Below, in pieces: positions 43,173-53,331 of a stretch of 64,000 bases of DNA. This stretch comes from Basilea psittacipulmonis DSM 24701. Lineage in GTDB: Bacteria; Pseudomonadota; Gammaproteobacteria; Burkholderiales; Burkholderiaceae_B. How positions within the stretch are numbered: the first letter of the stretch is position 1; each line of letters opens with the position of its first letter. Position numbers and translations under genes: made by a program. The stretch lies in contig NZ_CP009238.1 of NCBI RefSeq assembly GCF_000743945.1, positions 1,798,001 to 1,862,000 on the forward strand. The letters run 5' to 3'. A model generated the notes under the pieces. It had not been told where the DNA came from. It worked only from the letters and a program-made list of their open reading frames with translations, and did not search any database.

Positions 43173-43541
43173 TTACTCCGAAAAAAAATCTCTTCTTATG
43201 TAATCTCTATAAGCTTTGCATATTTCAGGCCTGTTAGCACAATACAATATAGGATGTTTTACTTTATATACATAGCCCATTTCGTATAAACATTTTCCTA
43301 AAGGAGGGTAGGTTTTATCAAAGTTTCCTGTCCTTATAACTTCCTCAGTGTCGACAACTATACCCATGACTTCAAATATAGCTTTGTCGTCACAAAATCT
43401 AAAATCTTCATTAGTTACTTCTTCCTCGGTTTCTGCATCAACCCAACTAGCATAGCTATATATCTCAAAAGGTTCTCTATAAAGAAACGGAAAGCATCCT
43501 GTTAAAAGAAATGATATGACAATGATGACTAACTTTTTCAT
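43173..43541 (-). CDS. Cysteine-containing lipoprotein of the toxin locus (copy 2)
   Basis: A 122-residue predicted lipoprotein: signal peptide MKKLVIIVISFLLTGC with Cys16 as lipid site, acidic middle region (DAETEEEVTNEDFRFC) and the paralogue motif GKCLYEMGYVYK followed by ILYCANRPEIC. It starts four bases after the stop of the orphan toxin-tail gene, the place where an immunity gene would be expected. No family name is known to me. Confidence 0.68.
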   Translation of the reverse strand: MKKLVIIVISFLLTGCFPFLYREPFEIYSYASWVDAETEEEVTNEDFRFCDDKAIFEVMGIVVDTEEVIRTGNFDKTYPPLGKCLYEMGYVYKVKHPILYCANRPEICKAYRDYIRRDFFSE

Positions 43542-43544
43542 TGC

Positions 43545-44057
43545 TTACTCTCCCTCACTATTAGGATTAACTTCATTGAAAACTCGAACTCCTTTTGAAT
43601 CAGGGTACATATTCATAAGAATTTCTTTGACCTTATGCATTGCTTGCCTACTTTTTTCATCACCTGGATAATACACATACTTCAAATTATTAATGTTCTG
43701 ATTAGCTTCAGAATGTGCATCGAATACAGACAAGTTGCCTCGATTAGGTTTGGCATTGGGGTTGTCTCCTATCATACCATATCCCAAGTTTCTTAAAAGA
43801 GGCAATCCTTCGTAAACAAAATCGCCCTTAATGCCATGATATAGCGTTTTAACCTTTTTAAATAAGGTTCTGGATTGTTTATCGATTTCAATCGAAGGAT
43901 AGGATCCACCTAAATGTAAATACTCTACATTAGTGTTATCATATCTTTGTCCAAGATAAGCTGACCAATTCAGCATATTTTTATTACCTGACTCTTCGGC
44001 TTGTGCGGTAGAGGTAATCAACTCACCTTTTAGGTTGGTATGCTGATTAACATTCAC
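43545..44057 (-). pseudogene. Orphan FhaB/CdiA toxin-tail module
   Basis: The frame begins at a GTG inside a sequence that continues upstream in frame as SGLFAGDEGYQ to a stop at about 44091, so it has no real translation start. Its first 24 residues match an internal part of the big exoprotein (about 45985-46095). It then jumps, at a Ser-Gly, directly to NKNMLNWSAYLGQRYDN, the start of the exoprotein's C-terminal 141 residues. The first about 68 residues of that tail are almost identical in DNA (one mismatch in 203 bp); the last about 45 residues differ. This is the structure of a displaced or donor cassette. It may still act through recombination rather than by being translated. Confidence 0.7.
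43783..43985 (-). repeat. Direct repeat, copy in orphan toxin tail
   Basis: 203 bp nearly identical (one mismatch seen) to 44766-44968 in the same orientation, 983 bp apart. It covers the first part of the toxin tail and ends exactly where the tail begins (NKNMLN). Recombination between the copies would swap the divergent C-terminal part and delete the lipoprotein gene between. Confidence 0.85.
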
Positions 44058-44195: not shown

Positions 44196-44546
44196 TTATT
44201 TTCTATATTTGTTCCATTTTTTACAAGTTCTCTCAAATCTATAACAATATTTCCAACTAGCATTAAACCTATATCCTTTTTGATATAAACAAGCCCCCTC
44301 AAGATTCCCAACTTTCTCTTGATCATCTGGATTAGCAGCTATTTCTAATCCACCTACAACTTTTGTTTCAAATGGTGCTAATGCTTGAGCATAACATTCT
44401 CTAACAGTATCTCCAGAAGGAGAAGTATTATTATTTTGATGAACCCATATATCCTCATTCCAAAATGAAGAATACGGCGGATACCAAACCCAGAGACAAC
44501 CACTTACGCAACAGGCTAAATATAAAATAGTAATTTTTTTTATCAT
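44196..44546 (-). CDS. Cysteine-containing lipoprotein directly after the exoprotein gene (copy 1)
   Basis: A 116-residue predicted lipoprotein: signal peptide MIKKITILYLACCVSGC with Cys17 as lipid site, aromatic WVWYPPYSSFWNED after it, then VRECYAQ, GACLYQKGYRF and WKYC plus a last Cys. It overlaps the stop of the exoprotein gene by 4 bp, so it is translationally coupled to the toxin, the usual place of an immunity gene. An eight-A run sits at codons 2-4, in frame here. Periplasmic or membrane location would suit a toxin acting at the envelope; this is inference. Confidence 0.7.
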   Translation of the reverse strand: MIKKITILYLACCVSGCLWVWYPPYSSFWNEDIWVHQNNNTSPSGDTVRECYAQALAPFETKVVGGLEIAANPDDQEKVGNLEGACLYQKGYRFNASWKYCYRFERTCKKWNKYRK

Positions 44547-47500
44547 TTGTCATCTCCAACAATATTGAACTTTCTGATTCCATCTTGATGAGTTTTGTTT
44601 AAAATATCTAAAGTGTTTTTCCATTTTTCAGCAGATTTTTCATTATTTTCATCATAAACAAACTTCAAATTATTAATATTCTGGTTGGCTTCAGAATGTG
44701 CTTCTAATGTAGATAAGTCTGCTCGATTGGGCTTGGCATTTGGGTTATTCCCTATCATACCTAGCCCCAAGTTTCTTAAAAGAGGCAATCCTTCGTAAAC
44801 AAAATCGCCCTTAACGCCATGATATAGCGTTTTAACCTTTTTAAATAAGGTTCTGGATTGTTTATCGATTTCAATCGAAGGATAGGATCCACCTAAATGT
44901 AAATACTCTACATTAGTGTTATCATATCTTTGTCCAAGATAAGCTGACCAATTCAGCATATTTTTATTACCTGACACCCCTAAACTATGAGCCACGTTTT
45001 TTAGCGTATACTCTGGCTCTCCATGCAATCTTGCATAAGCATTATATTCATCTAATTTTTTTGCAATTTGAGCATGATCTCTCGTCGCATTAGATGCTCC
45101 GAATATTGCTGGCATGTTTGCCCAAGCTCTAAAACGTTCAAAACCAGTAAATAAAAATTCACTTAATATTCCCGCACTGCCTCGATTAAGGATTACGGCT
45201 GTATCATTAATAGAGGCTAAATCATCATCATATAAAATAGCAGTGCTAACTTTCTGTACTCTTGTTAAATTCAACATACCTGCGGTGGAAACCTTACTTA
45301 ATAGCGCAGCTTGTTCTTTGGTTAACCGTTCTTCACTATACAGTATCCGTTTAAGTTCTTGGGAGTTATCTTTATCGTAATCTAAGCAAGACATATGATT
45401 ACAATTTGTGGTTTTAGGTTGAATAGTAAATAGAGAGTCTTCATTTTTCTCCATTTTGTAGTAAATTTCATCACCTTGATTGTTGAAATTATTCACAAAC
45501 TCAGTTGCAGTGTTTAAATCACGTTCTAAATTCGAGCGAATGGTCTGGATATCTGCTTTTTCAACTGATTGATGAAGATTAATCTTAGGAAGATTTTGTA
45601 AACTTTCTTCAACACTTTTACCTGTAAGAGCCAATTGTTTTTCCGCATCACGTATCTTGATGTGCTCCGTATTGATTGAACTAGTGGTGATACCGTTTTG
45701 ACTACCTTTATCGCTAACTTGTCCGAGTAATGCAGTTGCAATGCCTTTGGTAACTCCCCAATTGCCTTGGTTTGCAATACCTGCAACACCGCTATATTCT
45801 ACTTTAGCAGAACCATCTTTAGCATTTTCTCCGATGGGTTGTAGTTTCTTGCCGTCAATTTCTTTTGGTGCAGTACCTCCACTTATGGTAACCCCGCCAC
45901 TTAATCCAAAACCTTTTGCAGAATAACTGCTATGGTTTTGAATATCAGAATAAGAGAGCGTTCCCGTCTCAAAACGGTTCTTACCTGACTCTTCGGCTTG
46001 TGCGGTAGAGGTAATTAACGCTCCTTTTAAATCTGTGTGGTTATGTACATCAATTTGATAGCCCTCATCGCCTGCAAATAAGCCAGATTGTTCTTGTACG
46101 CTGGCGTAATCTGCTTTCATTTTTGATTGATTAAAGCTGGCTGAACCAGAGAAACCATAACCAACTGTCACTTGTCCGCTGACGTTCATTTGTTTACTTT
46201 CATAACGCATGGTATCTTGTAAGCTGGCTATATTAAGGTTATCTGCGTTAAGGACAATGCTTTTACCTTGTACTTGAGCACCACGAATAGATGTGTCACC
46301 GCCACTTTGAATGAGAGTTTGACTCGCTTTATCGCCGACATGACTGTTACGCCAAGTGACTTCATCACCGTTGCCATAGCCTTTGCCGTAGTTGCCACCA
46401 GCAGTGACTCCGAAAGCAAATCCATTCGATCCATAACTGATGGCTACACCAGCATTAAAGCCACTGGATTTATTTTTACTGCGTTCTTGGTGAGTTTGTT
46501 TTGCGGCGAGTAAATTAATCTCATCGTCAGCTTGTAAGAGTGTGCCTTGTTTGCCCGATACATCCGACCCCACAATATGAATATCTGATGCTTTGTCTGC
46601 ACCAGTGGCGACCATAGTGATTTTTCCACCAGCATTAACAGCACTATTAGCCGCTGTATTGCCTTGAATATCGGTGGTTTGGACATTCTTTTGTTGACCA
46701 TAAGTGATGGATACACTGACATTGGCACCTTCAGCCAAATTACCATTCGCCATTTGACTTAGGCTTTCTTTGGCTTGCATTAAACCCTGTCCTGCTCGAT
46801 AAGCACTCCAAGCGGTATTAGCACTAGTCATTGCATTGATTCGGTTGTTTTTACTGTCGCCGATTAATTTAGCTTCTTTTGCTACAGCGAAAGCACTTTG
46901 GACGGCTTGTATGACAGGAACATTTATCGCAATGGTTAAGCCCTTTTGTTCCATCGTGTGTTTGTAATGGCTTGTATATTTGTCATCGGCCGCTAAAATA
47001 GCAATGTTTTTCGCAATAATATTGACATCGCTTTCAAGTGAAGACACGGTACTTCCTTGCTGACGGTAATCATCTTGAGCAAGTAAAGTAGTGATGCCAT
47101 TTAAGCTACCGACTTGGCTAGCGGTGGCGTAATATTTGCTTTGATCATTTTCAGTCGTGACTTTTTTACTGCCAATGGTAAACCCAAACCCTGAACCCAT
47201 TAAACCTGATTTTGTGGTTTTCTCAAAATCTTGTTCAAAGACACGGTTCTCTGCTTCTTTAATCGTCAGGTTTTTAGCACGAGCGTCGAGTTGATTTTCT
47301 GCGACAATATTGGATCCTTGAACCGTCAAATTAGCAAGGCTTTGTAATATCACATTTTTGCCATCTAGGGTTGAGCCTTTAGCTAAATCGTAATCATGAT
47401 CGTGTTTGGTAACATAAGTGGTGGATTGCAAGAAGCCACTACGTTTTACTTTGCCTGCAGATGAAAGTTGTTCCTTGTCTCTGCCTTCTTCAATGCGGAT

Positions 47501-50500
47501 ATCACCCTGCGAAAGCAAGTGAATATCACCTTGTTCGCTATGGACAGTTCCTTGACGAACTACAGTGCCTTGTTCACTTGAAAGCGTGATATCGCCAGTT
47601 GCATTAATCTGTGAACCTACTTCTTGTTGTTGATGGAGACGATAGTAATTATCTGCATTCGCATTGTAATGGGTTTTGTTTAAGGTATTGAGTGTGCCTA
47701 CATCAATATGTTGGCCTTGCACCAGTATTTCGCCTGCACTGTTGAGTATCGCTCCTTTAATGGTGACATCTTCAGGGCTGTAAATAATCAACTTACCATT
47801 TTTATCTTGCACATTCACATTGGCAACTTGATCAACATGAGTACGTTCAAATTCATTCCCAAATTGATTGTCGCGACGACTACTAGTGGTGCTGGCGATC
47901 TCAACGCCATTTTGTCCTATTAAAGTAGCTGAGCTAAGTGCTTCGATTCTACCACCAAGATTGACTAATTTTTGATTGGCACGCAGATCCACTGAATCTC
48001 CTAAGACCACGCCCTGATTACTTAGGTTATTGCTAGAAAGTGCGGTAAGATTCTGTCCTGCTATGGTTCCTGTGTTAGTTAATTCACCGTTGAAGCTTCC
48101 TATAATATTTTGTGCAGAAATTAATGCTCCTTGTGAACTCACATCAAGATGACGGGAAACTAAGTAAACTTGAGGAGTAAGCACCGTGATGGTTTTACCA
48201 TTAGGTAATGTAACGTCTTGGTTAACAAACCACACCATATCGCTGGTAAGTTCTGACATTTGTTCGGCGGTTAAACCTACGCCTAAGCTCAGGTTAAATT
48301 GCTTGGCATAATGAATACCATTATCCATTAACGCCTTATATTGCTCTATGTCAGAACTATAATTATCTAGGAAGCGACGACCAGTAAGTTGATTAATTTG
48401 TTCGTTAATTAAACGCTGTTCATAATAACCATCTCCCAAGCGTTTCTGTACATTTTCATGGTTTGAACGTAACGCGGTAAACATATAGTCAGAACTGAGC
48501 CATTGTTTACGGTTAATAAAACGAGCATCGGTTTCTACTAAATAGCCATTTGGTGCATCAGGATTGATTTTATAAAGGCTCTCTTGTGGTAGTCGAATAT
48601 CTGCTAAATGAGTTTTAACCTTAGTGTCATGTTCATCGTTATGAGTGGTTACTTCCCCAGAAATGATTGCATCTTGTGTAGCGAGGGAAACATTTTTCAA
48701 CGAGACGTTTTCATGAGTCGTTTGATTGGCGATGTTAATTGCGGTACTGTGAATCGGAGTGCCGATTTCATTTAGCACTAAATTGAAATTAAAATACTGA
48801 GTGGGGTGTGTCTCTTTGAAATTACCTCCACCATCACCATAAACAGCCCAGCGTTTTTTACCTAAAAAACCATAACGATGACGATGCTTGGCAAAACTAC
48901 TCCAACGTCCTGTATCCGTGATATCAATAGATCCCAAGGTATCTATATTTTTAAGCACAACACCATCAGTGGCCTGTAAGTTGTTATTTTGAGGGTTGTT
49001 TGCAAAACTGGTATCGCCTAATAATAATTGGTGACCTACAGATAGGGTAGAAGTATTGTTTTCAAGTTCATTCCCTGACAGATGGAGATCGCCGCCAATT
49101 AGAATTTTCGCTGGGTCTCGTTGTTCAATCGTTGAAGTAATGGTGTGGCGATTGTAACCCCAAGTCACCCAGCCATTGGCTGCAATGGTTCTTCCATCAT
49201 TCAGCCTTAAATAAGAGTTTCTATCCCGTTTATTGTTATTTTTTAAATCAAACCGACCATGCGTACCATCTTTATCTACTAATACGTAGCGTTGAGAAGC
49301 ATTTTTTGGTGCATATTCAACTCGCCGTTCATCAGTATGATTCTCGCCCAAGGTTAAATACAAATCGTGATTAAATAGTCTTTCGGTATGAATACTTCCA
49401 TTACCTAAAGCTTCAATCGTCGCACTACCATTATCAATTAGCTTGGCGTAACCCGTTGCCTGATGATTGCTATCAAGCATGCCTCCAATTGCTAAATCTC
49501 CAAGACTTAATACAAGGCTGTGATCACGATTGAGTAAGGTGTTAACACCAAGATTAAGAGATTGGCGAGCAGCGATAGTGGCGGATTGATCGTCCTCTTT
49601 TACATTGTTTAATTGATCTGTTTGAATAGCCAACTGATCGCCATAAATCCTGCCTGAACCTACATTGTTTAAGGTAACAGTGTTGATAACGTTAGTCGTG
49701 CCATCAATCAATCCATAATTGCTTAAAGTTTTGCTGGTAATTAAAGTATGCGTTGAGGAAATTTCGGCATTCTTACTATTTAACAGATTGTTGGCGGTCA
49801 CCGTTGCTTGGTTGCCCACCACCAGTTCAGCATGGTTGACAAAGTCGCCAGCTGTACTAAAATCTAGATTGTTACCAATTTGAAATGCTTGATTTAAGCT
49901 GAAGTCATCCATCAGTTTGATACGGGCATCGCCTTGGGTTTTAATAGTTCCTTCTTGTACTAATCCTTTGGCATCAATATCAATCTTATGTCCTGCTTCA
50001 ATCAATCCATCTTGGTTATTGATTAATAGTTGTGGGGAGAAAAAGGATACTGCATTACCGCCTAACATCTCGCCATGTTGATTATTTAAGGTTTGAGCTA
50101 CTTTTGCAGAGAGATTTTCAGAGGCATAAATCCCACCACCTTGGTTAGCGACATCATTGGCAGTTAAGTGAACGTCTCCACCCCAAATTAACCCATCGTT
50201 ATTGTTAATTTGAGTCGCTTGATATTGAATATTCTGTTGGGCTACTGTTGTGCCTTTTTGATTGATACTCGTTTTGGCGGTTAAATTGGCATTACCGTGA
50301 CGAGCAATTATTTGTCCCTGTTGGTTTATGTCAGTAGTAGAGGTTAACTTAATATCTTTTTTATTTGATTCAATGCGTCCTATATTTTCAATCTGCTGGG
50401 CGTTCACGTTTACTTGTTGTTCGGCATGGATGATATTTTTATTAACAAGCCGCCCTTGTGAGTCAATTAATATCTCTCCTGCCGTCGCTCCAATGTGCCC

Positions 50501-51484
50501 CGCATTGCGTACGCCAAGACCTTGATCTGTACCTACCAAATGGATTTTTTCCGCATACATCCCGCCAAGTTCTGTCACATCTAAAGCATAATATGGGGTC
50601 TTTTCATTGAGATTTTCACCATCAATACGGATAATTTTTAATTCACGATCAGTTTGATCACTATCTGACGGTTGGACAGTATTTTTGCCAGTCACGACAT
50701 TGAGTTTTTTGCCTGCCCAAATACCCGCATTAATTTCTGCCTCTCTAGCAAGGATATCGGTATAATCAACACGACTGTTATCTAGGCCTCGACCACTGAC
50801 TTTTACTTGACCTTTTTCGACCTGAAAACCCGCTACACGGCCATCTTCAAGAATTGGTTTACCTGTGGTCATGGTTGAACGACTTGCATTAATCGTACCG
50901 CACCCATCGCAATGAAGTCCATTTGGATTGGCAATAATCACTTCGGCTTTTTTCCCTGCAACTTCAAGGTAACCCTTGAGTTGGCTTGGATGGGTGGAAG
51001 TCACTTCGTTAAGAATTACTTTGGCTTCACTATGAGCAAGATAGGGATTGCCCTGCACCCAGCCTGCTTGCTGCGTTTGTGTGGCTTTATGGCTATTATT
51101 AAGAATTGCTCCTTTGTTATCCACATTAAAATCTTGGTATTTATTATGAGAAAGCCCTTTGTCATTTGGTGTTTGAATATTAACCTGTGGCAATCCATTG
51201 GCTGTTTGGATAATAATAGGCTGTTGATTTTTAGGTGCATTAGGATCGGCTTTGATGATCAGTGTATCTGCTGATACATAAGAGGACACGGTAACAAAAC
51301 CCAAGGCACAGAGTAAACGGAAAGTCAGCGGTTTTAAAGTGCCTAAAATGGGCAAAAAACTTACCGCATGTTGCATTTGAGGTATGGTATTTTTTGATTT
51401 ACTTTCGGATTTTGCCAATTCCGAAACCGCGACAAAACGTTGTAAGGTTTTGCTAAAAATAACACGAAAGTAACGTTTGTTCAT
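44543..51484 (-). CDS. FhaB/CdiA-like two-partner secretion exoprotein (TpsA)
   Basis: A 2313-residue secreted protein. It starts with an extended signal peptide region (MNKRYFRVIFSKTLQRFVAV, then a long hydrophobic segment ending near SYVSA at about 71). The TPS domain covers about 72-320 and includes the motif NPNGLHCDGCG (186-196). A long filamentous haemagglutinin repeat region follows to about 1900. There is no VENN pretoxin motif; instead a pre-tail region of about 300 residues leads to a 141-residue C-terminal tail starting NKNMLNWSAYLGQRYDN (2173-2313) that is also present in the orphan module downstream. It probably delivers its tail into neighbouring cells or mediates adhesion; the tail's activity is unknown. 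GGGGA precedes the ATG. Confidence 0.9.
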   Translation of the reverse strand: MNKRYFRVIFSKTLQRFVAVSELAKSESKSKNTIPQMQHAVSFLPILGTLKPLTFRLLCALGFVTVSSYVSADTLIIKADPNAPKNQQPIIIQTANGLPQVNIQTPNDKGLSHNKYQDFNVDNKGAILNNSHKATQTQQAGWVQGNPYLAHSEAKVILNEVTSTHPSQLKGYLEVAGKKAEVIIANPNGLHCDGCGTINASRSTMTTGKPILEDGRVAGFQVEKGQVKVSGRGLDNSRVDYTDILAREAEINAGIWAGKKLNVVTGKNTVQPSDSDQTDRELKIIRIDGENLNEKTPYYALDVTELGGMYAEKIHLVGTDQGLGVRNAGHIGATAGEILIDSQGRLVNKNIIHAEQQVNVNAQQIENIGRIESNKKDIKLTSTTDINQQGQIIARHGNANLTAKTSINQKGTTVAQQNIQYQATQINNNDGLIWGGDVHLTANDVANQGGGIYASENLSAKVAQTLNNQHGEMLGGNAVSFFSPQLLINNQDGLIEAGHKIDIDAKGLVQEGTIKTQGDARIKLMDDFSLNQAFQIGNNLDFSTAGDFVNHAELVVGNQATVTANNLLNSKNAEISSTHTLITSKTLSNYGLIDGTTNVINTVTLNNVGSGRIYGDQLAIQTDQLNNVKEDDQSATIAARQSLNLGVNTLLNRDHSLVLSLGDLAIGGMLDSNHQATGYAKLIDNGSATIEALGNGSIHTERLFNHDLYLTLGENHTDERRVEYAPKNASQRYVLVDKDGTHGRFDLKNNNKRDRNSYLRLNDGRTIAANGWVTWGYNRHTITSTIEQRDPAKILIGGDLHLSGNELENNTSTLSVGHQLLLGDTSFANNPQNNNLQATDGVVLKNIDTLGSIDITDTGRWSSFAKHRHRYGFLGKKRWAVYGDGGGNFKETHPTQYFNFNLVLNEIGTPIHSTAINIANQTTHENVSLKNVSLATQDAIISGEVTTHNDEHDTKVKTHLADIRLPQESLYKINPDAPNGYLVETDARFINRKQWLSSDYMFTALRSNHENVQKRLGDGYYEQRLINEQINQLTGRRFLDNYSSDIEQYKALMDNGIHYAKQFNLSLGVGLTAEQMSELTSDMVWFVNQDVTLPNGKTITVLTPQVYLVSRHLDVSSQGALISAQNIIGSFNGELTNTGTIAGQNLTALSSNNLSNQGVVLGDSVDLRANQKLVNLGGRIEALSSATLIGQNGVEIASTTSSRRDNQFGNEFERTHVDQVANVNVQDKNGKLIIYSPEDVTIKGAILNSAGEILVQGQHIDVGTLNTLNKTHYNANADNYYRLHQQQEVGSQINATGDITLSSEQGTVVRQGTVHSEQGDIHLLSQGDIRIEEGRDKEQLSSAGKVKRSGFLQSTTYVTKHDHDYDLAKGSTLDGKNVILQSLANLTVQGSNIVAENQLDARAKNLTIKEAENRVFEQDFEKTTKSGLMGSGFGFTIGSKKVTTENDQSKYYATASQVGSLNGITTLLAQDDYRQQGSTVSSLESDVNIIAKNIAILAADDKYTSHYKHTMEQKGLTIAINVPVIQAVQSAFAVAKEAKLIGDSKNNRINAMTSANTAWSAYRAGQGLMQAKESLSQMANGNLAEGANVSVSITYGQQKNVQTTDIQGNTAANSAVNAGGKITMVATGADKASDIHIVGSDVSGKQGTLLQADDEINLLAAKQTHQERSKNKSSGFNAGVAISYGSNGFAFGVTAGGNYGKGYGNGDEVTWRNSHVGDKASQTLIQSGGDTSIRGAQVQGKSIVLNADNLNIASLQDTMRYESKQMNVSGQVTVGYGFSGSASFNQSKMKADYASVQEQSGLFAGDEGYQIDVHNHTDLKGALITSTAQAEESGKNRFETGTLSYSDIQNHSSYSAKGFGLSGGVTISGGTAPKEIDGKKLQPIGENAKDGSAKVEYSGVAGIANQGNWGVTKGIATALLGQVSDKGSQNGITTSSINTEHIKIRDAEKQLALTGKSVEESLQNLPKINLHQSVEKADIQTIRSNLERDLNTATEFVNNFNNQGDEIYYKMEKNEDSLFTIQPKTTNCNHMSCLDYDKDNSQELKRILYSEERLTKEQAALLSKVSTAGMLNLTRVQKVSTAILYDDDLASINDTAVILNRGSAGILSEFLFTGFERFRAWANMPAIFGASNATRDHAQIAKKLDEYNAYARLHGEPEYTLKNVAHSLGVSGNKNMLNWSAYLGQRYDNTNVEYLHLGGSYPSIEIDKQSRTLFKKVKTLYHGVKGDFVYEGLPLLRNLGLGMIGNNPNAKPNRADLSTLEAHSEANQNINNLKFVYDENNEKSAEKWKNTLDILNKTHQDGIRKFNIVGDDK
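44766..44968 (-). repeat. Direct repeat, copy in exoprotein C-terminal tail
   Basis: Partner of the repeat at 43783-43985, with one mismatch seen. The repeat boundary coincides with the start of the C-terminal tail, as expected of exchangeable toxin cassettes. Confidence 0.85.
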
Positions 51485-51517: not shown

Positions 51518-53251
51518 TTAAAAGTTTAAACCAATATTGAAACCTGTTGTGATATTTGTTGTTTTAAAACCATTTGGTTTATACAAAGGCCGCCCAACAA
51601 AAACATCATAATAAAAATGCCTCCAATTTCCACGCAATCCAAGGGCTGTACCTATTAAATAATGTCCTAATCGCATCTCATCATCACGTCCTGTGACCCT
51701 ACCACCATCCAAGGCTAGATAAACCCAATGTCCTTGATTAGCGATATTCCAGCTCAATTCGTTACGCCACAACCAACCACGTTCCCCTGATAAATTAAGC
51801 TCCCCATCGAACCCACGTACTGTATAACGTCCAACAATACTGAATCTATCTTGTTGGATAAGAGGAGTTTTGTTCCATTGAGCAGACCAACTCGTATTAA
51901 ATACAAACGACTGTTTTCCTATATTAAAAGGATAATTCATTTCTACTGAAGCCGTTATAATTTTAGGACGAGAAGTGCCCTCTCCCCAATATTCTTCAGG
52001 AGCAGGTATAGAGCGACGCACACCTGTTCCCCACTTAAACCCTGCAGAAAGCTTAAGTGTGGTCGCTTTAATATATTCAATATGACTAAGATTGATCTGC
52101 CAACCAGCCATTCGACGACGTTGAACCTCGATTTCGAATTGATCGATGTAGTTTTTCGAGTGCCGAGACCAAAAACCCCCTGAAAGTGTCGTTTTACGTA
52201 CAGCATCACGATAAAGAAGATAGCTAATATTGACATTGCTTGTTTCACTACGTCCAGAGTAGAGATAGGTATTGTTAAATGCCCCAAACACCTCTTGATG
52301 GTAGTCCGTTTTATATAGTGAGGCAGACAGCGTCCAATAAGCAAAAGGAATGGAGTAATAAAAACCATAGTTTTGAGTTGCACGACGACCTAGTTCATCG
52401 CTGTGACGTTTTAGACTATGTGTGAAAGTGGCATAAAATAAGTCATTAGCAGAAAAGAGATTATCCCATGAAACCGTAGTTGATCCTTGCCATTTGCCCG
52501 TGGATTTGGATCCCGAATCATCCAAATTTAAATTTAGTCGAAAAGGAAAACGCTGTTGATAAGTGATTTTTATATCGCTTTCTCCAATCTGAGTGCTATC
52601 AGCAGGAAGAATTTCAACATTAGCATCAGCTGTTGGCACACGTTTTAAATTCTCTAACGACTGTTCAATATCTCGCACATTCAATATATCACCTTGTTCA
52701 AATGCGATCGCTGTTTTTGCCGTCAGTTTACTAAACCAAGGAATGCGACTGGCATCTGCAATAATTGTATGGCGAACGCGACCTGGAATAATAGTTAAAG
52801 AAAATACACCTTGATTTAGGTCTTGTTCGCTTGCTACTACTCTTGTGGTGACATAGCCTCGCTCAATAATATTATTTTGTACTTGCTTCATTAAAACACT
52901 TAATCCATTAACCCCAAAACAATGAGGTAATTGGAGGTTTAACTGTTTGACAGCTTTATTTAACGCCCATTGAAATTGGCTGGATTGAGAAAGGTTATTG
53001 GAAGAGGCGTAGTCAATTAAGGAAATCTGTTGAATGGCATAGCAAGGGGATTCATTAATGGGAAGTGTGGTGGTTTTTTCAGAAGAAATTTCCATTCTCA
53101 CATCAGCGTCCGAACGAAGTTTCTCTTTTTGTTGCTGAATCTGTTCATGTTGACGTTGTTGCTGTATAGCATCGATACGATTTAATTCGGGAGAAGGTCG
53201 TTCTGCTGCCAACAAAAATGATGAGAAACTGCAAAGCCAAATCAATGCCAC
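51518..53251 (-). CDS. TpsB outer-membrane transporter (FhaC/CdiB family), start out of frame
   Basis: Omp85-type transporter that secretes the exoprotein. The visible frame has the N-terminal helix/linker, POTRA domains (about 75-225: CYAIQQISL and the stretch ending VRHTIIADASRIPWF) and a beta-barrel with the secretion motif VRGFDGELNLSGERGW. It ends in a C-terminal Phe (GFNIGLNF). The frame opens only with a GTG lacking a well-placed ribosome-binding site. Just upstream, ATG 53264-53262 with AGGTAG eight bases before it would give the signal peptide MKKIVALIWLC if the A-run had seven A. With the eight A seen here translation from that ATG stops at 53145. The gene is thus OFF as read, or the sequence has an error. 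Confidence 0.88.
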   Translation of the reverse strand: MALIWLCSFSSFLLAAERPSPELNRIDAIQQQRQHEQIQQQKEKLRSDADVRMEISSEKTTTLPINESPCYAIQQISLIDYASSNNLSQSSQFQWALNKAVKQLNLQLPHCFGVNGLSVLMKQVQNNIIERGYVTTRVVASEQDLNQGVFSLTIIPGRVRHTIIADASRIPWFSKLTAKTAIAFEQGDILNVRDIEQSLENLKRVPTADANVEILPADSTQIGESDIKITYQQRFPFRLNLNLDDSGSKSTGKWQGSTTVSWDNLFSANDLFYATFTHSLKRHSDELGRRATQNYGFYYSIPFAYWTLSASLYKTDYHQEVFGAFNNTYLYSGRSETSNVNISYLLYRDAVRKTTLSGGFWSRHSKNYIDQFEIEVQRRRMAGWQINLSHIEYIKATTLKLSAGFKWGTGVRRSIPAPEEYWGEGTSRPKIITASVEMNYPFNIGKQSFVFNTSWSAQWNKTPLIQQDRFSIVGRYTVRGFDGELNLSGERGWLWRNELSWNIANQGHWVYLALDGGRVTGRDDEMRLGHYLIGTALGLRGNWRHFYYDVFVGRPLYKPNGFKTTNITTGFNIGLNF

Positions 53252-53253
53252 TA

Positions 53254-53261
53254 TTTTTTTT
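53254..53261 (-). repeat. Poly-A (8) tract at the TpsB translation start
   Basis: Eight consecutive A on the minus strand immediately after the ATG of the transporter gene. Seven would restore the open frame with a proper signal peptide. Slipped-strand mispairing at such a tract would switch the system ON and OFF. Confidence 0.7.
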
Positions 53262-53305
53262 CATACACAGCTCTACCTAATAAACCAACCATCACTATCT
53301 ATCAA

Positions 53306-53331
53306 GATGTTAGGTATATACACCTAACATC
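53306..53331 (-). terminator. Hairpin between the DUF3100 operon and the TPS operon
   Basis: Perfect 10-bp stem GATGTTAGGT/ACCTAACATC with a six-base loop, two bases past the stop of the small membrane gene at 53334. On the minus strand it is followed by TTGATAG, so the T-tract is poor. It may terminate the upstream operon or be an operator for the TPS genes; TTGATA-N16-TTATTA just after it is a weak promoter candidate. Confidence 0.5.

What the first reader, a model, noticed from the sequence alone, without database searches (positions are those of the whole stretch)
53145..53264. Poly-A(8) tract puts the TpsB transporter start out of frame: possible phase switch
Seen: ATG 53264 with a good ribosome-binding site is followed by eight A; in this frame translation stops at 53145 after 39 codons. 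With seven A the frame would read MKKIVALIWLC, a proper signal peptide, and continue into the full transporter. The frame that is open now has only a GTG about 23 bases past the ribosome-binding site. Known: homopolymer slippage at coding starts drives ON/OFF switching of surface proteins. Inference: secretion of the 2313-residue exoprotein may be phase variable. A sequencing error in the homopolymer is the main alternative.
Basis: partly seen in the sequence, partly recalled or inferred. Interest (0 to 1): 0.72.

Follow-up and report, generated by a model that had tools for sequence, protein, structure and literature searches.

The report
Poly-A frameshift at transporter gene start
A run of eight A's directly behind the start codon throws a bacterial surface-protein secretion gene out of frame; a related species shows its own out-of-frame run at the same spot, so this looks like a real, possibly reversible silencing rather than a sequencing error, but a true on/off switch has not been shown.

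Summary
ATG 53264 (minus strand) is followed by A8 and its frame closes after 39 codons. The transporter frame's first canonical start is GTG 53251, 19 bases past the ribosome-binding site. The gene is a CdiB-like TpsB (PF03865 plus POTRA; best solved relative CdiB 6wil), upstream of a 2313-residue TpsA.

A base-calling error is unlikely. In 464 kb of this genome, 160 homopolymers of 7 or more lie inside unbroken frames. The orthologous start of Avibacterium gallinarum is also out of frame, with a run of another length (A6), while three other relatives with such a run are in frame. The frame has been under purifying selection (dN/dS 0.06-0.10).

A dedicated phase switch is not supported. The run is the usual AAA-AAA lysine codons of a signal peptide, A/T runs of 8 or more are under-represented here, and this genome's evident switch-type tracts are poly-G/C. 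Orthologs elsewhere are broken by other mutations.

Best reading: real, recent slippage silencing, reversible in principle, possibly leaky. No strain-level or read data were available to tell switching from loss.

The parts
53254..53264 (-). ATG start codon (53264-53262) followed by the A8 run (53261-53254)
   Evidence: Sequence; the only one of 12 ATG-A8 sites in the genome that sits at the out-of-register start of a long frame
53145..53264 (-). 39-codon dead-end frame read from the ATG
53271..53275 (-). Shine-Dalgarno-like TAGAG, 6 bases before the ATG, 19 before the GTG
   Evidence: aligned TAGGG in A. gallinarum, A. endocarditidis and H. somni
53249..53251 (-). GTG, first canonical start codon in the transporter frame; no SD at normal distance, no K/R before residue 18
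51518..53251 (-). TpsB/CdiB-like outer-membrane transporter, 577 codons (POTRA_2, POTRA_3, ShlB)
   Evidence: Pfam; best PDB match CdiB 6wil E 1.9e-82
44543..51484 (-). TpsA exoprotein, 2313 codons, intact: ESPR, TPS domain, Fil_haemagg_2
   Evidence: TIGR01901
44196..44546 (-). Small lipoprotein-like gene (by eye) overlapping the tpsA stop; candidate immunity gene
   Evidence: No Pfam or NCBIfam match; 24% identical to 43173-43541
43545..44057 (-). Orphan TpsA C-terminal module
   Evidence: 77% identity over 141 residues to the TpsA C-terminus, tail differing; 91% DNA identity over 340 bases
43173..43541 (-). Second small lipoprotein-like gene (by eye) behind the orphan module
53306..53331 (-). 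Perfect 10-bp inverted repeat between the upstream gene and tpsB (terminator or operator, undetermined)
   Evidence: Sequence, fold

Best explanation
In this isolate a replication slip in the lysine-codon A run right behind the start codon has put the ATG out of register with the transporter frame. Ribosomes loaded at the SD read 39 wrong codons and stop, so little or no CdiB-like transporter with a working signal peptide is made, and the intact TpsA made from the next gene should not be exported by its own partner. Because the lesion is one register of a slippery run, it can revert by the same kind of slip: a slow, incidental on/off state, not a specialised switch. Shown: the frame break, the intact remaining frame, the natural run of another register in A. 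gallinarum, purifying selection averaged over the divergence. Inferred: loss of transporter and export, recency, reversibility.
For: Frame anatomy. SD spacing fits the ATG only. Of 120 listed homologs, 6 (P0001, P0002, P0052, P0056, P0065, P0110) have no K/R in residues 2-9; the window's own and the A. gallinarum entry are two of them. A. gallinarum ATG-A6-TAG is out of frame, while A. endocarditidis, a third genome of that genus (G207) and H. somni are in frame at the start. Of 30 ATG-A6 sites fetched from A. gallinarum (199 in its genome), 10 were in-frame starts and tpsB was the only out-of-frame one. dN/dS of the open frames is 0.062-0.103 against four relatives (NG86). 160 runs of 7 or more, 25 of them 8 or more, sit in unbroken frames in 464 kb. 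A8/A7 and A9/A8 coding runs slip in V. cholerae wbeL and manA, and reversal was shown for manA (PMC3441752, passages).
Against: No second isolate of this species could be read. The closest protein cluster (P0001) has 2 member sequences on 2 contigs and its representative is the GTG-started form, so no in-frame form is known for this species. A. gallinarum's protein (P0002, one sequence on 6 contigs) shows no in-frame form either, which fits fixation rather than switching. Slippage in transcription or alternative initiation could keep some expression.
Confidence: 0.45

Rival explanations
1. Plain loss: tpsB is being inactivated in this strain, and the poly-A slip is just a likely first hit; it will not be switched back under selection.
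For: Orthologs are broken elsewhere by other lesions: the H. somni type-strain copy changes frame near residue 320 and Cricetibacter has an internal stop; a 427-residue relative that lacks the N-terminal part (P0013) represents a cluster of 7 member sequences. Three other TpsB/TpsA pairs exist in the genome.
Against: No second lesion in 577 TpsB or 2313 TpsA codons; dN/dS low; SD and ATG kept.
Confidence: 0.2
2. Dedicated phase switch: the run is kept by selection as a contingency locus that makes mixed populations of secretors and non-secretors.
For: Same tract out of frame in two lineages in different registers; the genome carries many poly-G/C tracts in surface genes; FHA, a TpsA, is phase variable through a G10 tract in B. 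pertussis (PMC7446907, passages).
Against: The run is explained by lysine codons; 11 of 14 ATG-A7 N-termini listed (from 30 of 48 sites) look, by eye, like signal-peptide or membrane-anchor starts; A/T runs of 8 or more number 60 against 135-143 expected; A8 is short; in four H. influenzae genomes, A/T tracts of 8-10 varied mostly by substitution and were not judged phase variable, although the same paper lists some longer mononucleotide tracts in further strains as candidates (PMC2651432, passages).
Confidence: 0.15
3. The gene is still expressed: initiation at GTG 53251, or recoding (transcriptional slippage on A8 or frameshifting), gives enough transporter.
For: Open 577-codon GTG frame; out-of-register wbeL of V. 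cholerae kept partial function through nonstandard decoding dependent on its A7 run (PMC3441752); a passage of PMC1088944 suggests slippage can be productive even on eight A in Deinococcus IS elements.
Against: GTG is 19 bases from the SD and gives a signal peptide without K/R before residue 18; the abstract of PMC6260861 says bacterial RNA polymerase needs at least 7 T and even more A to slip; ribosomal slippage on poly-A usually goes -1 (recalled), whereas +1 is needed here.
Confidence: 0.12
4. Assembly error in the homopolymer.
For: Homopolymers are the classic error of long-read assemblies (recalled); the sequencing method of this genome is unknown; of 21 G/C runs examined, 9 have a long neighbouring frame that does not span the run, which could be switching, decay or error alike.
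Against: 160 intact coding runs of 7 or more in 464 kb; of 14 neighbouring-frame pairs listed there, the 5 pairs scanned with Pfam gave no sign of split genes (one member of one pair had no match; the other 9 pairs were not scanned); A. gallinarum shows the same kind of break, and its protein P0002 is on six contigs, one of 2,379,116 bases, whereas L005 lies on an 80,894-base contig, so probably at least two assemblies (identity of P0002 and L005 judged by eye over the first 30 residues).
Confidence: 0.08

Closest known systems
V. cholerae O1 wbeL and manA poly-A contingency tracts (PMC3441752, passages seen)
   Same: Coding A8/A7 and A9/A8 runs; one-base slip gives a short dead peptide (42, 81 or 207 residues there, 39 here); residual expression by nonstandard decoding reported for wbeL
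   Different: Isolate variation and, for manA, reversal were shown there; O-antigen enzymes, run inside the gene rather than at the start codon
B. pertussis fhaB G-tract phase variation (PMC7446907, passages seen)
   Same: Homopolymer frameshift silencing a two-partner secretion system
   Different: In the exoprotein gene, G10, mixed populations demonstrated; here in the transporter gene, A8, nothing demonstrated
CdiB/CdiA contact-dependent inhibition loci of Pasteurellaceae (H. parasuis D74, PMC6211672, passages seen)
   Same: tpsB-tpsA order, small genes and orphan cdiA-like modules downstream
   Different: No frameshifted cdiB described in the passages seen; toxin and immunity not established here

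Membership tests
Simple-sequence-repeat contingency (phase-variable) locus | Repeat whose length sets the reading frame of the gene | tested here: met
Simple-sequence-repeat contingency (phase-variable) locus | Repeat class longer or commoner than chance in the genome | tested here: not met
   A/T runs of 8 or more: 60 observed, 135-143 expected in 464 kb; poly-G/C is the over-represented class
Simple-sequence-repeat contingency (phase-variable) locus | Length differs between isolates of one species, both states seen | not testable with these tools
   One genome per species; between species, 2 of 5 starts with a comparable run (window included) are out of frame
Simple-sequence-repeat contingency (phase-variable) locus | Reversible at high frequency | not testable with these tools
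   Needs culture or reads
TpsB / Omp85-type two-partner transporter | POTRA domains plus ShlB barrel, tpsA next door | tested here: met
   TPS domain in the adjacent gene
Contact-dependent growth inhibition (CdiBAI) | CdiB nearest solved relative, TpsA with haemagglutinin repeats, orphan C-terminal modules | tested here: met
Contact-dependent growth inhibition (CdiBAI) | VENN motif before a toxin C-terminus (motif recalled) | tested here: not met
   No VENN in the 2313 residues; DENN near the extreme C-terminus only
Contact-dependent growth inhibition (CdiBAI) | Cognate immunity protein directly downstream | tested here: inconclusive
   A small lipoprotein-like gene overlaps the stop, without any family match

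The most novel reading that the evidence does not exclude
In this Pasteurellaceae lineage the lysine run of the signal peptide doubles as a slow genetic switch: the CdiB-type transporter is recurrently thrown out of and back into frame at its start codon, so a population always holds secretors and non-secretors of a CDI-like exoprotein, alongside a large poly-G/C repertoire in surface genes and a type III-A CRISPR effector gene.
Probability: 0.13. Interest if true: 0.6.

Novelty: new member of a known kind. Interest (0 to 1): 0.36.

Why it matters
If switching is real, it would place the off/on control of a contact-dependent, CDI-like secretion system in its transporter gene, at the start codon itself, and would suggest that the common AAA-AAA starts of exported proteins are a reservoir of cheap, revertible silencing. 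If it is only loss, it is a reminder that gene prediction can hide start-codon frameshifts by choosing a downstream start, as the database entries for this gene (P0001) and for A. gallinarum (P0002) show.

Tried and rejected
Species name: Mergibacter septicus was guessed and rejected (type-strain genome 1,887,770 bp and 36.4% GC in PMC8645869, against 1,959,069 bp for this genome and 40.4% GC in the window; a German isolate in PMC10536934 is also smaller). A search of 200 genomes of the assigned family was too broad: it mixes in many larger genomes and gave no match above 53% identity outside this genome. Minus-one ribosomal frameshifting was considered and rejected because the register needed is +1. 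The leader and start were folded: z -0.52, nothing unusual. An A10 run near another tpsB (L077) lies in its leader, 36 bases before a well-placed ATG, so it is not a frame switch. A viral-contig scan for the Cas10 fragment found no relative.

Searches for print. In those listings I saw no paper reporting a poly-A switch in a tpsB or cdiB gene; nine papers were opened, none in full: PMC10536934, PMC8645869, PMC6211672, PMC3848433 (40: passages set rare tpsA cassette exchange beside slipped-strand variation of other genes, no tpsB switch), PMC3441752, PMC1088944, PMC7446907 and PMC2651432 as passages, PMC6260861 as outline and abstract.

Rows dropped: one of 30 loci per set was not relocated by the script. 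In one search two A5 sites flagged as possible out-of-frame starts (L072:701, window 57013) were set aside because the long frame there opens 30 and 57 bases upstream of the codon after the run. L012 starts too near its contig edge to show a gene start and was not read. In one search YN00 failed for 5 of 10 pairs and NG86 is quoted. In one search, 137 further runs of 7 or more lay at frame edges or between genes and say nothing about errors.

Full report
What is there. On the minus strand, ATG 53264 is followed by eight A (53261-53254), and that frame ends at 53145 after 39 codons. The transporter frame is closed directly upstream by a TGA that overlaps the ATG; its first canonical start codon is GTG 53251, from which 577 codons run to 51518. 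The SD-like TAGAG is 6 bases before the ATG and 19 before the GTG, and three aligned relatives have TAGGG at the same place. The GTG form has no K or R before residue 18; 6 of the 120 listed homologs have none in residues 2-9, two of them being this gene and its A. gallinarum ortholog. The ATG is therefore most likely the natural start, and it is out of register.

What the gene is. POTRA_2, POTRA_3 and ShlB domains, with CdiB 6wil (E 1.9e-82) and 6wim ahead of FhaC among solved structures. Next comes an intact TpsA of 2313 codons with ESPR, TPS and haemagglutinin-repeat domains, then a small lipoprotein-like gene, an orphan module 77% identical over 141 residues to the TpsA C-terminus with a different tail, and a second small lipoprotein-like gene 24% identical to the first. 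That is the layout of CDI loci, but no VENN motif was found and no immunity family matched, so CDI membership stays open. The genome has four TpsB and four TpsA genes. The other three TpsB genes have usable in-frame ATG starts (two; the third behind a GAGGG).

Is it an error? In 464 kb of this genome (window plus 20 stretches), 160 homopolymers of 7 or more lie inside unbroken frames of at least 80 codons, 25 of them 8 or longer. Fourteen neighbouring-frame pairs with a run of 6 or more at the junction were listed there; five pairs were scanned with Pfam and gave no sign of split genes (parA/parB, ybaB/recR, def/ABC and others, where one member of one pair had no match); of the nine unscanned, one, at a G7 run, is by eye a frame break between an ESPR-like start and a 2570-codon frame (no Pfam match). 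Outside that sample, G/C runs break further frames: of 21 G/C runs examined, 9 have a long neighbouring frame that does not span the run. Those are 8-11 bases long and could be switching, decay or error. For A runs the record of this assembly is clean. The A. gallinarum break is probably carried by at least two assemblies (contigs of 80,894 and 2,379,116 bases; inferred). I hold an error unlikely but not excluded, as the sequencing method is unknown.

Comparison. The starts of nine relatives were read (L005-L011 and L013, L091). Four have a comparable run: A. gallinarum (83% protein identity) has ATG-A6-TAG, out of frame in another register than the window; A. endocarditidis (82%), an unnamed member of the same genus (G207, 81%) and H. 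somni (79%) are in frame. Of the other five (Cricetibacter, Volucribacter, Bibersteinia, Necropsobacter, H. massiliensis), none has such a run at its start; the last two carry an ATG-A5 in another register, but an in-frame ATG overlaps its end. Counting the window, 2 of 5 starts with a comparable run are out of frame. In A. gallinarum, 30 of 199 ATG-A6 sites were examined: 10 in-frame starts, 6 internal, 12 other, 1 not relocated, and tpsB the only out-of-frame start; in the window's genome 30 of 48 ATG-A7 sites gave 13 in-frame starts and no out-of-frame one. The same gene being hit in both genomes is suggestive but was noticed after the fact. Against a special switch, the H. somni type-strain copy is broken near residue 320 and the Cricetibacter copy by an internal stop, so this gene is lost in several ways.

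Age. dN/dS (NG86) of the open frames is 0.067, 0.080, 0.103 and 0.062 against A. gallinarum, A. endocarditidis, G207 and Volucribacter. Pairwise values average over the whole divergence, so they show that the gene was functional for most of that time, not that it works now.

Is the run special? No. ATG-A7 starts are common (48 sites against 20 for the reversed pattern), and 11 of the 14 N-termini listed from 30 of those sites look, by eye, like signal peptides or anchors. A/T runs of 8 or more number 60 in 464 kb against 135 (order 2) and 143 (order 4) in simulated sequence, 3 replicates each. By contrast, G/C runs of 8 or more number 4 in the sample against about 0.7-1.3 expected, and 36 runs of 7-13 (31 of at least 8) were located in the parts of the genome that I read; these account for 109 of 137 G7 words. 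Frames at or beside 20 of those tracts were scanned with Pfam; matches include sialyltransferase, GT25, GT2, GT9, GT52 and fucosyltransferase domains, acyltransferases, a YadA-type adhesin, an autotransporter beta domain, an Opa-like porin, sulfatase domains, a histidine kinase and Cas10. So this organism has an evident poly-G/C repertoire; the tpsB run does not belong to that class.

Mechanism. Best supported: replication slippage in a lysine-codon run silenced tpsB recently; the same kind of slip can revert it. Precedent for A8/A7 and A9/A8 coding runs slipping, with reversal for manA and residual nonstandard decoding for wbeL, is in PMC3441752 (passages); length limits for transcriptional slippage are from the abstract of PMC6260861 and passages of PMC1088944. 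Precedent for homopolymer silencing of a two-partner system is fhaB in PMC7446907 (passages). Whether this tract switches in a population cannot be told from one genome.

Verdict. Observation confirmed; interpretation partly supported; a new member of a known kind, moderately interesting. The poly-G/C repertoire, above all a C8 run that splits a type III-A cas10 gene, may deserve more attention than the finding itself.

Noticed in passing
G000:C1:1266582-1266589 (L170:2082-2089), array L214:1739-3291, operon L213:1952-9128: A C8 run splits a type III-A Cas10/Csm1 gene into a short 5' frame (ATG, ends soon after the run; no family match of its own) and 676 codons in another register (padloc Cas10a profile 139-649); csm3, csm4, csm5, cas6 and two CARF genes follow, and an array of 24 exact 36-nt repeats plus one degenerate copy lies nearby. 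Of 16 other genomes searched, one (G208) has a relative, in one open frame of 769 codons without a C run there (an A8 lies a few codons on). A phase-variable or broken CRISPR effector; not searched in print.
   Followed up: partly
G000:C1, 36 tracts listed: Poly-G/C runs of 7-13 are strongly over-represented and lie in or beside glycosyl-, sialyl-, fucosyl- and acyltransferase, adhesin, porin and sulfatase-domain frames, with seven tracts at 48-58 kb; several are out of register.
   Followed up: partly
L060:10710-18552 (G000:C1:110710-118552), run at L060:10877: An ESPR-like start (by eye) is followed by a G7 run shortly before its frame ends, while a 2570-codon frame (no Pfam match) continues in another register: possibly a second type V secretion gene out of frame at a homopolymer.
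   Followed up: partly
L077:3951-3960 (minus strand A10): Another tpsB of this genome has an A10 run 36 bases before its ATG, in the leader; only two A/T runs of 10 occur in the 464-kb sample.
   Followed up: partly
window 53306-53331: Perfect 10-bp inverted repeat between the upstream gene and tpsB, without a T tail.
   Followed up: no
L013 and L081 (H. somni, Cricetibacter): Orthologous tpsB genes broken by an internal frame change and an internal stop respectively.
   Followed up: partly
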